Shown piece after piece: positions 376 to 56,934 of a stretch of DNA of 64,000 bases (position 1 is the stretch's first letter; each line of letters starts with the position of its first letter). The stretch is from Shimia isoporae (lineage in GTDB: Bacteria > Pseudomonadota > Alphaproteobacteria > Rhodobacterales > Rhodobacteraceae), in NCBI RefSeq assembly GCF_004346865.1, contig NZ_SMGR01000001.1, positions 1,364,001-1,428,000 on the forward strand. The letters run 5' to 3'. Position numbers and translations under genes: made by a program. Under the pieces are notes generated by a model. It ran no database searches and was not told the origin of the DNA. It saw nothing but the letters and a program-made list of their open reading frames with translations.

Positions 376-1799
376 GTGACATTCTGATCGTAGATGACGA
401 GCGCGACATTCGGGAATTGATATCCGATATTCTTGAAGACGAAGGTTTTGCTACGCGCAAGGCAGGCAATTCTGACGATGCCATGAAGGCCGTCACGGAA
501 AAGCAGCCAGCGCTGATGATCCTCGATATCTGGCTCAAAGACAGCAACATGGATGGCATCGACATTCTGAAGGCCGTGAAGCGGGATTATCCAGAAGTGC
601 CGGTCGTAATTATTTCCGGCCACGGGAATATCGAGATCGCCGTCGCAGCGATCAAACAGGGCGCGTATGACTTCATTGAGAAGCCATTCAATATCGACCA
701 ACTGATGGTAGTGATCCGCCGCGCAATGGAAACCAGCCGCTTGCGCCGCGAGAACACCGAATTGAAGCGACAGGACGGCGCGCCTTCGGAACTGATCGGC
801 GAAAGCGCTTCGTTCCGTACGTTGGTGAGCCAACTGGAGAAGGTGACTCGATCCAATGGGCGCGTGATGCTGACAGGCCCAGCCGGTGTCGGCAAAGACG
901 TGGCTGCGCGATTCATTCACGCGAACTCCAATCGGGCTTCGGGTCCCTTTGTGACGGTAAATTGTGCGGGCATGGATCCGGATCGCGTCGAGGAGATGTT
1001 GTTCGGCCGTGAAAGCGCTGAGCGGGGTGTTGAATCCGGGATGCTTGAGCAGGCACACGGTGGTATCATCTATTTCGACGAAGTCGCCGACATGCCGCTT
1101 GCCGCGCAATCGAAAATCCTGCGTGTGCTTGTGGACCAGCAATTCACCCGGGTTGGTGGCGCGGATAAGGTCAAGGTGGACCTGCGCGTAATTTCCTCGA
1201 CAAACAAAGACCTTATGGCGGAGATTGATGCCGGCACATTCCGTGAAGAGTTGTTCCATCGCCTGAACGTTGTGCCAATCGCCGTGCCGTCGCTTGAAGA
1301 GCGTCGCGAGGACATTCCCGCGCTTGCAGAGCACTTTATCGCGGGGTTCAACGAACAGCAGGGGCTGCCACTTAGAGTGCTGAGCGAAGATGCAATCGCG
1401 CTTATGCAGACGATGGTTTGGCCGGGCAATGTGCGGCAACTCAAGAACCTGATCGAGCGTGTGCTGATCCTTGGCGAAGGCAGCGGAGAAATCGAGGCGG
1501 CCGAGTTGCCAGAAGAAGGCGGATCAGGCGGTGGAGATGACGGGCGCGTGGTGTTGTCCGGAGCCTTGGCTACTTTGCCCTTGCGTGAGGCACGTGAAGC
1601 GTTTGAAAGGGAATATTTGCTGACCCAGATCAACAGGTTTGGTGGCAACATCAGTCGGACCGCGAATTTTGTCGGCATGGAGCGCAGCGCTCTTCACCGA
1701 AAGCTAAAGTCGCTTGGTGTGGTTACGTCCAACAAATCAGGCGCTCGTGTCGCCCGAGTATCCGAGGAAGATGACGACGAAGCGCGCAAGGCCGGATGA
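372..1799 (+). CDS. ntrX: NtrC-family response regulator NtrX (GAFTGA-less)
   Basis: A 475-residue response regulator. The receiver domain (residues 1-120) has the acidic pair D9/D10, phospho-acceptor D52, S82 and K104. The AAA+ domain has Walker A GPAGVGKD (169-176), Walker B GGIIYFDEVAD (230-240) and the arginine-finger region around FREELFHRLN. A Fis-type helix-turn-helix closes the protein (about 428-452, NISRTANFVGMERSALHRKL). The sigma54-contact motif GAFTGA, expected near residues 212-220, is replaced by GRESAERG, and Walker A departs from the usual GESGTGKE. The protein therefore probably works without sigma54, as is known for NtrC of Rhodobacter capsulatus. It is coupled to ntrY upstream and convergent with the lipoprotein genes downstream. 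Confidence 0.95.
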   Translation: MSDILIVDDERDIRELISDILEDEGFATRKAGNSDDAMKAVTEKQPALMILDIWLKDSNMDGIDILKAVKRDYPEVPVVIISGHGNIEIAVAAIKQGAYDFIEKPFNIDQLMVVIRRAMETSRLRRENTELKRQDGAPSELIGESASFRTLVSQLEKVTRSNGRVMLTGPAGVGKDVAARFIHANSNRASGPFVTVNCAGMDPDRVEEMLFGRESAERGVESGMLEQAHGGIIYFDEVADMPLAAQSKILRVLVDQQFTRVGGADKVKVDLRVISSTNKDLMAEIDAGTFREELFHRLNVVPIAVPSLEERREDIPALAEHFIAGFNEQQGLPLRVLSEDAIALMQTMVWPGNVRQLKNLIERVLILGEGSGEIEAAELPEEGGSGGGDDGRVVLSGALATLPLREAREAFEREYLLTQINRFGGNISRTANFVGMERSALHRKLKSLGVVTSNKSGARVARVSEEDDDEARKAG

Positions 1800-45434: not shown

Positions 45435-47249
45435 TCAGTCCTCCCACCACCAGAGCTGAGGCATCCAATCCGCGCCATCGCCATAAATCGGCAACTCGTC
45501 TGGATATTTCATCTCTTTTCGGTGGGCGATGCGTCCAACGGAATAGGTCCAGATCGGGATGATGTAGCGTCCTGTTGTCAAAACGCGGTCCAACGCACGC
45601 GTTGCGGCCACGAAATCATCCTGGGTCTCGGCTGTCAGCATTTCCGTGATCATGGCGTCTGCTGCGGCCGACGCGATTCCTGCTAGGTTGCGTGACCCGG
45701 GCTGTGCAACCGCGCCCGACCCCCAATAGAGGCGCTGTTCGTTGCCGGGACTAAGGGACAGAGCGCGACGTTCCTTGGTGATGTCAAAGTCGAAATTGCC
45801 GGTGCGTTGGGCATATTGGGCGTTGTCGACAAGAGTCACCGATACATCGATGCCAAGTTGTTCGAGCGACTTTCGCCATATGTCGACAACGGCTTTGTTC
45901 TGATTGTCATTCTGAGGGAGAAGAATGTCCAGCGAGAGCGTTTCTCCGGACGCGTTCCGCATCTTGCCATCGACGATGTCCCAACCGGCTTCGTTCAGCA
46001 GTTTTACGGCGGTCCGCAGGTTGCGACGGTTGCGGGCAGAGCCGTCCGAGGCAGGTAAGTCGTAGCCTGACAGGGCTTCTTCTGGCAATTCGTCGGCAAA
46101 GGGCGTGAGCAACTGCTGTACTCTGCCTGTGGCCGGACCCGGTTGCATGGACAATAGCGAGCCTGAGAAAAACGACGTGATCCGCGGTTGGCGACCGCCT
46201 GTCATCGTGTCGTTGATATATTCGAAATTGAAGCTGTGCATCAGCGCGTCGCGCACCCGGATGTCATCAAGCGGCGCGCGGCGCGTGTTCATAACGAAAC
46301 CGGTGATGCCGGACGGCTTCTGATGTTCAATCTCGGATTTGACAATGTCTCCTGACTGCACAGCGGGAAAAGAATACTGGCTGGCCCATTTTTCAGCGTT
46401 GAACTCGCGGGCATAGGAAATGTCGCCTGCCTTGAAGCTTTCAAACAGGACTTCGCCATCACCGTAGAAGTCTATCCGTATCTCGTCGAAGTTGTTTGTG
46501 CCCTGCCGGAACGGAACATCCTTTCCCCAGTAGTTGGGGTCGCGTTTCAGCGTGACCTGCCGTCCGGCTTCGAAATCGGCGACGACATAGGGCGCCGAAC
46601 CGATCGGGAAGTTCTCCAGGGTTGCATCGGTCAAGGCGCTGTTTTCGTATTGGGCCTTTTTCAGGATCGGTCGTAGGCCTGCGATCAATGCCAGTTCGCG
46701 ATTGTCTGTATTGAAAGTCAGGCGGACCGACCGCGGACCGGTAGCCTCAATAATGGCGACCTGATTCCAGAACGTGTGGTAGCGGGGGTGGCCTTCGGTG
46801 CCGAGAGTTTCATATGACCAGATCACATCCTCAATTGTGACCGGTGACCCATCAGAAAAGCGGGCCTCTTCTCGCAGAGTGAACTCGACCCAGCTTCGAT
46901 CCGGGGCGGTTTCGATGGTTTCCGCCAAAAGACCATAGAGCGCAAATGGCTCGGCGCGGTTGCGACCCATCATCGACTCATAAGCGAAGAATCGGAGCTG
47001 CCACGGGCTGTTTCCCTTCAGCACAAACGGGTTAAGCGAATCGAATGCGCCGGTGTTTCCGGTTACGATCCTGCCACCCTTGGGGGCGTTGGGGTTGGCG
47101 TAAGGCAAGGCGGAAAAATCAGCAGGCAGCGCAGGTTCGCCGTACATGGCGATACCGTGAGACGGCTCAGCGATTCCCTGTCCAGCCAAGAAAACAAAGG
47201 CTACGGCGGCCCTTGCTGCTATTTTTGGGAAGAAACATACTGGTTTCAT
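45435..47249 (-). CDS. Extracellular solute-binding protein, family 5 (peptide ABC transporter)
   Basis: A 604-residue periplasmic protein with signal peptide KIAARAAVAFVFLAGQGIAEP. Family 5 features include PALPADFSALPYANPNAPKG near the N-terminus and SLNPFVLKGNSP, then a long two-domain body. The pattern is that of YejA-type oligopeptide-binding proteins (ABC importer). No permease or ATPase gene is adjacent within the window, so it may be an orphan receptor. On the opposite strand upstream lies the putative sRNA and bdhA. Confidence 0.92.
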   Translation of the reverse strand: MKPVCFFPKIAARAAVAFVFLAGQGIAEPSHGIAMYGEPALPADFSALPYANPNAPKGGRIVTGNTGAFDSLNPFVLKGNSPWQLRFFAYESMMGRNRAEPFALYGLLAETIETAPDRSWVEFTLREEARFSDGSPVTIEDVIWSYETLGTEGHPRYHTFWNQVAIIEATGPRSVRLTFNTDNRELALIAGLRPILKKAQYENSALTDATLENFPIGSAPYVVADFEAGRQVTLKRDPNYWGKDVPFRQGTNNFDEIRIDFYGDGEVLFESFKAGDISYAREFNAEKWASQYSFPAVQSGDIVKSEIEHQKPSGITGFVMNTRRAPLDDIRVRDALMHSFNFEYINDTMTGGRQPRITSFFSGSLLSMQPGPATGRVQQLLTPFADELPEEALSGYDLPASDGSARNRRNLRTAVKLLNEAGWDIVDGKMRNASGETLSLDILLPQNDNQNKAVVDIWRKSLEQLGIDVSVTLVDNAQYAQRTGNFDFDITKERRALSLSPGNEQRLYWGSGAVAQPGSRNLAGIASAAADAMITEMLTAETQDDFVAATRALDRVLTTGRYIIPIWTYSVGRIAHRKEMKYPDELPIYGDGADWMPQLWWWED

Positions 47250-47324
47250 TGCCTCAACAATCCTGTCTTGCCTTTGTTTTGTTAGGCTTAGGAGTAGCGG
47301 GGGTTTTTAAGCATATCAAACTTT

Positions 47325-47440
47325 TAGCTTGGAGAGCGGCAGTGAAATGCCTATAAAGGAGTCACTGCTCGATAGGTTTCTTGCCTGTATGAAACCTGCC
47401 TCAATAACTTTACGCCCGCTTCGCGCGGGCGTTTTTTTTG
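47325..47440 (+). ncRNA. Candidate Hfq-type small RNA with three hairpins
   Basis: Hairpin 1 GCAGTGA (47339-47345) with TCACTGC (47362-47368); hairpin 2 AGGTTTC (47374-47380) with GAAACCT (47391-47397); a single-stranded U/A-rich stretch CTCAATAACTTTA; hairpin 3 CGCCCGC (47413-47419) with GCGGGCG (47425-47431) followed by eight T's, a Rho-independent terminator. No forward-strand gene lies within about 2 kb upstream to need this terminator, and no protein frame covers the region. The loop of hairpin 1 holds AAAGGAG. The start is uncertain; no good promoter was identified. Family not recognised. Confidence 0.6.
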
Positions 47441-47504
47441 CCCAAAGGCACTTGGTTTAGCGGCCTTACGTAAGACTACGCACGCGCGCTGATTTCCCTT
47501 ATTT

Positions 47505-47517
47505 TGCTGGTGCAGCA
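47505..47517. promoter_or_regulatory. PhaR-like inverted repeat at bdhA
   Basis: TGCTG-GTG-CAGCA is a perfect 5-3-5 inverted repeat, 41 bases before the bdhA ATG, immediately upstream of TATGAT (47521-47526). PhaR, the regulator of polyhydroxybutyrate genes in Paracoccus and Rhodobacter, binds CTGC-N3-4-GCAG-type sites, so this is a plausible operator. No experimental support. Confidence 0.4.
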
Positions 47518-47558
47518 TGGTATGATGCGCGTGCAAAATCTGGATGAGAGGAATCGGC

Positions 47559-48332
47559 ATGAGCCTGACTGGAAAAACCGCGATTATTACCGGCTCAAAC
47601 TCGGGAATCGGTCTTGGTGTAGCTCGGGAAATGGCGCGGGCTGGCGCGAGGGTGATTCTGAATTCTTTTACGGATCGGGACGAGGATCATGCACTTGCTG
47701 CGGAGATTGCCGCGGAATTCGGCGTATTGGCGCGATACATAAAGGCCGACATGTCCAAAGGAGATGAATGCCGCGCGTTAATCGAAGAGGCCGGAGGCTG
47801 CGACGTGTTGGTCAACAATGCGGGCATCCAGCATGTGGCTCCGATCGACGAGTTTCCGACAGATAAATGGGACGCAATTATCGCGATCAACATGAATTCT
47901 GCGTTTCATACCACAGCAGCAGCGCTGCCGTATATGCGCGAGCGTGGCTGGGGGCGTGTGATTAACATTGCCAGCGCGCATGGTCTGACGGCGAGCCCGT
48001 TCAAAGCCGCATATGTCGCGGCGAAACACGGGGTGGTTGGCATGACCAAGACAGTGGCGCTTGAGACTGCCGAAGAACCGATCACCTGCAACGCGATCTG
48101 TCCGGGCTATGTTCTGACTCCTTTGGTCGAAGCACAGATTCCCGACACCATGGAAAAATACAACATGGGCCGTGAAGAGGTGATCAAGAAAGTCATGCTG
48201 GAACGCCAACCGAGCCGCGAATTCGCGACAGTCGAACAGTTGGGGGGCACGGTGTGTTTTCTTGCGTCTGATGCGGCGGCCCAGATTACCGGAACAACGA
48301 TCAGCGTTGACGGTGGCTGGACGGCGCTGTGA
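47559..48332 (+). CDS. bdhA: D-3-hydroxybutyrate dehydrogenase (BdhA)
   Basis: A 257-residue short-chain dehydrogenase: TGSNSGIGLGVA (NAD-binding glycine motif), NNAG, catalytic Ser in INIASAHGL and the AAYVAAKHG Tyr/Lys pair. The long middle stretch TPLVEAQIPDTMEKY with conserved IPD matches 3-hydroxybutyrate dehydrogenases. It oxidises D-3-hydroxybutyrate to acetoacetate, used when PHB is broken down. ATG 47559 has the ribosome site GAGAGGAA; a longer frame from 47544 is not needed. The patatin gene follows by 24 bases. Confidence 0.93.
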   Translation: MSLTGKTAIITGSNSGIGLGVAREMARAGARVILNSFTDRDEDHALAAEIAAEFGVLARYIKADMSKGDECRALIEEAGGCDVLVNNAGIQHVAPIDEFPTDKWDAIIAINMNSAFHTTAAALPYMRERGWGRVINIASAHGLTASPFKAAYVAAKHGVVGMTKTVALETAEEPITCNAICPGYVLTPLVEAQIPDTMEKYNMGREEVIKKVMLERQPSREFATVEQLGGTVCFLASDAAAQITGTTISVDGGWTAL

Positions 48333-56876: not shown

Positions 56877-56917
56877 AAAAAAAAACGGGCGCGTCCATGA
56901 AGGCATGGAACGCGCCC
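56877..56917 (-). terminator. Intrinsic terminator for the membrane-protein gene at 56935
   Basis: CGGGCGCGT-CCATG (56885-56898) pairs with CATGG-A-ACGCGCCCG (56903-56917) around AAGG, with an A-run at 56877-56884 that reads as T's on the reverse strand. It is 17 bases after the stop of the reverse-strand gene. Confidence 0.9.
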
Positions 56918-56934
56918 GGCAGGTTGCGGCAATG

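What the first reader, a model, noticed from the sequence alone, without database searches (positions are those of the whole stretch)
47325..47440. Candidate Hfq-binding small RNA between a peptide-binding protein and bdhA
Three clean hairpins in a row, the last with U8, in a region with no forward gene within 2 kb upstream. The unpaired stretch before the terminator is U/A-rich as in Hfq-dependent RNAs. The loop of hairpin 1 has AAAGGAG, and hairpin 2 shows perfect symmetry. I do not recognise an Rfam family.
Basis: seen in the sequence. Interest (0 to 1): 0.7.

Follow-up and report, generated by a model that had tools for sequence, protein, structure and literature searches.

The report
Conserved stress small RNA, probably StsR
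The window holds what looks like a real small RNA gene of about 75 bases, kept almost unchanged across its bacterial family, probably the counterpart of a known stress RNA (StsR) that pairs with the leader of the cell-division genes; one of the three hairpins first described is not part of it.

Summary
The finding is very probably a real small RNA gene, but its 5' boundary was misjudged. Alignment across the family puts the start near 47363, so the RNA is about 47363-47439 (about 75 nt): a 5' tail, one almost invariant 7-bp hairpin, a short linker and a covarying terminator with U8. "Hairpin 1" (47338-47369) straddles the promoter; its left arm is not conserved and its "AAAGGAG loop" follows the -10 element. 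CTTG-N18-CYTATAA upstream resembles an alphaproteobacterial heat-shock (RpoH) promoter.

The element was found in 289 of 295 sampled genomes of the family, single-copy in the own genome. Rfam 15 has no gathering match.

RNA nt 20-36 are antisense to the 5' leader of the cell-division (dcw) genes, about 190 nt upstream of mraZ. At least 10 contiguous Watson-Crick pairs occur in 27 of 33 genomes examined. Published StsR of Rhodobacter sphaeroides (72 nt, RpoHI/II-controlled, Hfq-associated) binds this leader and its sRNA UpsM. I judge this RNA its ortholog (0.85). The StsR sequence was not obtainable, its reported rpoE pairing was not convincingly reproduced, and expression and Hfq binding are inferred.

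The parts
47328..47333 (+). -35 element CTTGGA
   Evidence: Conserved over 90 loci (CTTG at 0.83-0.98 per position); CTTGG-N17-CYTATAA occurs once in the window against 0.14 expected by chance, the pattern having been written after seeing the site
47350..47356 (+). -10 element CCTATAA (CYTATAA in relatives)
   Evidence: TATAA part at 0.79-0.96 per position over 90 loci
47363..47439 (+). small RNA, about 75 nt; start inferred to within about 2 nt, end in the U tract
   Evidence: Conserved block begins abruptly at 47363/47364; folds at -24.7 kcal/mol, z -3.65; covariance model R1 matches 47363-47440 at 106.3 bits, by construction because this sequence is in the model
47364..47370 (+). 5' tail ACTGCTC, can pair with box GAGCAG in the dcw leader
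   Evidence: Box found 15-75 nt downstream of the best leader match in 19 of 33 genomes
47374..47397 (+). hairpin (AGGTTTC / GAAACCT, 10-nt loop TTGCCTGTAT)
   Evidence: 99.8% of cells paired; 6 of 7 pairs never vary over 68 sequences, so no covariation evidence
47383..47398 (+). antisense stretch GCCTGTATGAAACCTG: 16 contiguous Watson-Crick pairs with the own dcw leader
47398..47411 (+). single-stranded linker before the terminator (GCCTCAATAACTTT)
   Evidence: Unpaired in the fold of the RNA
47412..47439 (+). intrinsic terminator hairpin with T8
   Evidence: all 8 pairs have changes on both sides among relatives, 92.0% of cells paired
   Evidence: 56.1% of cells paired over 68 sequences
45435..47249 (-). 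neighbour: solute-binding protein, family 5 (PF00496), divergent
47544..48332 (+). neighbour: 3-hydroxybutyrate dehydrogenase (TIGR01963, above cut-off)

Best explanation
A stand-alone, trans-acting small RNA of about 75 nt, probably the ortholog of Rhodobacter sphaeroides StsR. It has its own RpoH-type promoter, so it is probably made under stress and in stationary phase. Through nt 20-36, which are part of the hairpin loop plus the 3' arm of its own hairpin, it pairs with a conserved site about 190 nt upstream of mraZ in the 5' leader of the dcw genes; in R. sphaeroides that leader also yields the sRNA UpsM. Because the target covers one arm of the RNA's hairpin, pairing must open that hairpin, and the 5' tail ACTGCTC can pair with a second box (GAGCAG) downstream. 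By analogy with published StsR work the outcome would be RNase E cleavage of the leader, less dcw mRNA and slower division. Shown here by sequence: conservation, boundaries, promoter-like and terminator motifs, and conserved complementarity. Inferred: transcription, sigma factor, Hfq and RNase E involvement, and effect on division.
For: Found in 289 of 295 family genomes. A 39-nt core at 0.97-1.0 per position in 90 of 90 loci. Promoter-like pair directly upstream. Terminator with covariation. Best non-self match of the RNA in the own genome is antisense to the dcw leader (E 0.26; mraZ placed). At least 10 contiguous Watson-Crick pairs in 27 of 33 genomes; 25 of 33 are reached by at most 2 of 200 shuffles, and the sense strand outscores the antisense strand in 32 of 33. 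Net energy with accessibility -17.5 (own) and -16.2 kcal/mol (C. johrii). In C. johrii, whose reaction-centre H protein is 100% identical to the R. sphaeroides one used as query, the RNA lies in the same gene order and pairs inside UpsM as placed by the published geometry (PMC5089854 passages). StsR is published as 72 nt, RpoHI/RpoHII-controlled, Hfq-associated, and binding UpsM and the dcw leader (PMC8307010 sections 3 and 9; PMC11354728 and PMC8625941 passages).
Against: No StsR sequence or coordinates could be found, so identity is inferred. Published rpoE pairing (starting 10 nt downstream of the GUG, stated energy -18) is not convincingly reproduced: best net energy -7.3 elsewhere on the mRNA, and a +11 to +22 site gives only -4.4 kcal/mol. 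Six of 33 genomes have fewer than 10 contiguous pairs; 17 of 33 do not beat all 200 shuffles. Blocking the leader site in silico did not expose the neighbouring stretch I took as a possible cleavage region. No expression data.
Confidence: 0.85

Rival explanations
1. A family-wide RpoH-type sRNA that pairs with the dcw leader but is not StsR, so that two sRNAs converge on UpsM.
For: The StsR sequence was not seen; its old number RSs0827 could not be tied to this locus; rpoE pairing is weak.
Against: Size, promoter type and target all match StsR. Among the matches to UpsM listed in the C. johrii genome, those outside UpsM nt 142-206 were this RNA and three lying in long open frames.
Confidence: 0.09
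2. A three-hairpin sRNA starting at about 47325.
For: Hairpin 1 folds in this sequence.
Against: Hairpin 1 is not kept in relatives (56.1% of cells); it overlaps a conserved -10 element.
Confidence: 0.02
3. A divergent member of the suhB/MmgR family of alphaproteobacterial sRNAs.
For: Sub-threshold suhB match, 23.4 bits, 24.8 and 24.2 bits in two relatives; similar linker and terminator.
Against: Gathering score is 41; the matched part is mainly the linker and terminator.
Confidence: 0.03
4. A short protein-coding gene, or only a read-through terminator with no separate RNA.
For: An ATG lies in the core (ATGAAACCTGCCTCA, 47389-47403).
Against: The frame is not kept: it stops after five codons in L064, the ATG is lost in L081 and L087, and lengths differ after the core. 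A conserved promoter-like pair sits directly upstream.
Confidence: 0.01

Closest known systems
StsR (formerly RSs0827) of Rhodobacter sphaeroides
   Same: About the same length (72 nt published), RpoH-type promoter, pairing with UpsM and the dcw leader
   Different: Published sequence not compared; rpoE pairing not convincingly reproduced
suhB / MmgR (RF00519)
   Same: Hairpin, single-stranded linker with ACUUUA, terminator with U8
   Different: 23.4 bits against a gathering score of 41
SorX (RF02784), another R. sphaeroides stress sRNA
   Same: Short hairpin plus terminator layout; RpoHI/II promoter reported (PMC3320616 table passage)
   Different: No gathering match in the window; 22.1 bits against 46.6 in C. 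johrii; SorX is co-transcribed with a protein gene

Membership tests
StsR | Pairs with UpsM and the dcw 5' leader | tested here: met
   By complementarity only: 27 of 33 genomes with at least 10 contiguous Watson-Crick pairs; shuffles; energies
StsR | 72 nt, own promoter, intergenic | tested here: met
   About 75 nt by inferred start and U tract; no transcript data
StsR | Transcribed by RpoHI/RpoHII | tested here: inconclusive
   CTTG-N18-CYTATAA is conserved and contains the TTG and TAT reported for RpoHI/RpoHII promoters (PMC10673084 passages); a motif is not a test of the sigma factor
StsR | Sequence identity with published stsR | not testable with these tools
   Paper not held; probe-like words of the RNA found in no held paper
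StsR | Pairs with rpoE mRNA near its start codon | tested here: inconclusive
   Weak site at +11 to +22, net -4.4 kcal/mol; better sites elsewhere
StsR | Associates with Hfq | not testable with these tools
   Only reported for StsR (PMC8307010 section 9)
suhB / MmgR (RF00519) | Reaches the Rfam gathering score | tested here: not met
   No gathering match; 23.4 against 41 bits
SorX (RF02784) | Reaches the Rfam gathering score | tested here: not met
   No gathering match in the window; 22.1 against 46.6 bits in C. johrii

The most novel reading that the evidence does not exclude
A nearly invariant sRNA aimed at the cell-division leader is a core circuit of the whole family, not a speciality of phototrophic Rhodobacter. 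The leader site invades the sRNA's own hairpin while the 5' tail grips a second box. The pairing register shifts between lineages (RNA nt 20-36 in most; about nt 27-42 in G265, G163, G069 and G093; possibly the 5' tail in G068), and the near-invariance of 39 nt, more than one target needs, implies further conserved targets not yet named.
Probability: 0.45. Interest if true: 0.55.

Novelty: new member of a known kind. Interest (0 to 1): 0.42.

Why it matters
It gives boundaries, a promoter and a testable target to an RNA without an Rfam 15 match yet present in nearly every sampled genus of a large bacterial family. If it is StsR, the link from stress to cell division described in one phototroph extends to the family and can be tested in Roseobacter-group laboratory strains with a simple leader reporter. 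I could not see whether the StsR paper already reports this conservation (not held).

Tried and rejected
Rfam: no gathering match in the window; 13 sub-threshold matches for 47250-47545, best suhB, not accepted. Exposure of a cleavage region: blocking the leader site did not raise the unpaired probability of the neighbouring TTCATC stretch (mean 0.14 to 0.15 over 24 leaders, up in 3, down in 2; of 48 loci tried, 9 lacked the site pattern and 15 had no TTCATC). rpoE as target: not convincing. Spread beyond the family: model R1 hit 6 of 289 class genomes, 4 of them in the family; of the other two, L271 overlaps what looks by eye like the 3' end of rpsO and L270 has better SorX-like matches, so neither is counted. 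A 15-nt match elsewhere in the own genome (L026) lies inside a minus-strand reading frame with the complement on the other strand, so it is no target. Placing StsR by its old number failed: no passage seen gave coordinates. One search aligned only 44 of 89 loci, because loci are not re-oriented; it was redone with both strands (90 of 90). Whether this RNA is among the Ruegeria pomeroyi sRNAs of PMC4809877 (sections 7, 11 and part 1 of 12 read) was not settled: no coordinates were seen. A guessed DOI brought an unrelated Agrobacterium paper (abstract seen).

Full report
Observation. The forward strand at 47325-47440 holds three possible hairpins and a T8 tail. The fold of 47300-47460 beats all 200 dinucleotide shuffles, z -2.81; the shorter 47363-47439 does so with z -3.65. 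Rfam 15 gives no gathering-level match in the window.

Spread. A DNA search found the element in the own genome and in all 23 genus relatives searched, and in none of 16 genomes of other families (24 of 40). In the family, sampled at about one genome per genus, it was found in 289 of 295 genomes, and in 258 of the 260 that are at least 90% complete and at most 5% contaminated. The own genome has one copy. A covariance model hit 6 of 289 class genomes, 4 of them in the family; the other two are set aside. In that search the tool used stricter filters that lose weak matches, so absence outside the family is not proven.

Boundaries. I took 90 loci: 24 of the own genus, the 28 next best family matches, 30 genomes with weaker matches chosen for divergence, and 8 named relatives. 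All 90 contain the core; the pattern used to anchor them fixes part of nt 14-40 in advance. The 39 nt ACTGCTCGATAGGTTTCTTGCCTGTATGAAACCTGCCTC are conserved at 0.97-1.0 per position, and the block begins abruptly at 47363/47364. Upstream lie CTTGG (47328-47332) and CYTATAA (47350-47356), also conserved; the combined pattern, written after seeing it, occurs once in the window against 0.14 expected. The RNA therefore most likely runs from about 47363 into the U tract, about 75 nt.

Structure. On 68 distinct aligned sequences (alignment, counts) hairpin 1 pairs in 56.1% of cells, hairpin 2 in 99.8% and the terminator in 92.0%. All 8 terminator pairs show changes on both sides. Hairpin 2 hardly varies, so covariation says nothing for or against it. 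The whole-structure scores exceed all 500 shuffles, a control that related sequences can exceed without structure. Hairpin 1 straddles the -10 element and is rejected as part of the RNA.

Place. The gene lies between a divergent solute-binding protein gene (PF00496) and a 3-hydroxybutyrate dehydrogenase gene (TIGR01963). A rough motif test sees both neighbours in 66 of 90 loci. In Cereibacter johrii, reached through its reaction-centre H protein, the same order holds.

Target. The best non-self match of the RNA in the own genome (E 0.26) is antisense to a stretch about 190 nt upstream of mraZ (mraZ placed). I examined 33 genomes: 18 of the 20 (one had no mraZ match; for one, G094, I had no RNA locus) and 15 new ones, chosen because their RNAs diverge (one more had no mraZ match). 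At least 10 contiguous Watson-Crick pairs with RNA nt 19-44 occur in 27 of 33 and at least 12 in 22 of 33. A box GAGCAG, complementary to the RNA's 5' tail, lies 15-75 nt downstream in 19 of 33. In 29 further leader loci, found by similarity to the own leader and so not independent, CATACAGGC was seen in 25, all 25 with the box. Against 200 dinucleotide shuffles per genome, 16 of 33 beat all and 25 of 33 are reached by at most 2; the sense strand outscores the antisense strand in 32 of 33. Below 10 contiguous pairs are G098, G068, G211, G122, G056 (locus at a contig edge) and G233. In G068 the variant 5' tail ATGCTCGAAA is fully complementary to a leader stretch TTTCGAGCAT, a single suggestive case. 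Net energies with accessibility are -17.5 (own) and -16.2 kcal/mol (C. johrii, UpsM nt 53-72).

Known counterpart. StsR of R. sphaeroides is a 72-nt sRNA under RpoHI/RpoHII control and associated with Hfq (PMC8307010, sections 3 and 9 read). It binds UpsM and the dcw 5' UTR, leading to RNase E cleavage and less dcw mRNA (PMC11354728 and PMC8625941, passages). UpsM is 206 nt and starts 268 nt upstream of mraZ; a long leader with terminator is described as a feature of Rhodobacteraceae (PMC5089854, passages). With this geometry the pairing site in C. johrii falls inside UpsM. Among the 41 matches to UpsM listed for C. johrii (2 are UpsM itself), those outside UpsM nt 142-206 were this RNA and three stretches in long open frames (judged by eye).

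Limits. The published rpoE pairing is not convincingly reproduced. My fold with the leader site blocked did not support exposure of a cleavage region. Expression, sigma factor and Hfq binding were not testable.

Verdict. Very probably a real, family-wide small RNA, and probably StsR.

Noticed in passing
L270:1503-1574 and 1244-1314, minus strand (G557, another family of the class): Two SorX-like stretches about 190 bases apart, 43.6 and 36.9 bits against the Rfam gathering score of 46.6: possibly tandem SorX-like sRNAs outside the family.
   Followed up: no
dcw leaders, e.g. L193 and L196: Arms GATGAG and (C)TTCATC flank the sRNA pairing site in many leaders and can pair with each other in the C. 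johrii fold, so the site often sits inside a conserved hairpin.
   Followed up: partly
L089 (RNA) and L260 (mraZ region), genome G068: A variant sRNA whose changed 5' tail is fully complementary over 10 nt to a stretch upstream of its mraZ; perhaps co-evolution, one case only.
   Followed up: partly
window 56878-56924, minus strand: Weak match to the covariance model of this RNA, 15.6 bits, E 0.064; probably chance.
   Followed up: no
G333 contigs C155 and C247: The C. johrii draft holds two identical copies of the 206-nt UpsM stretch, each with mraZ; probably an assembly duplication.
   Followed up: no
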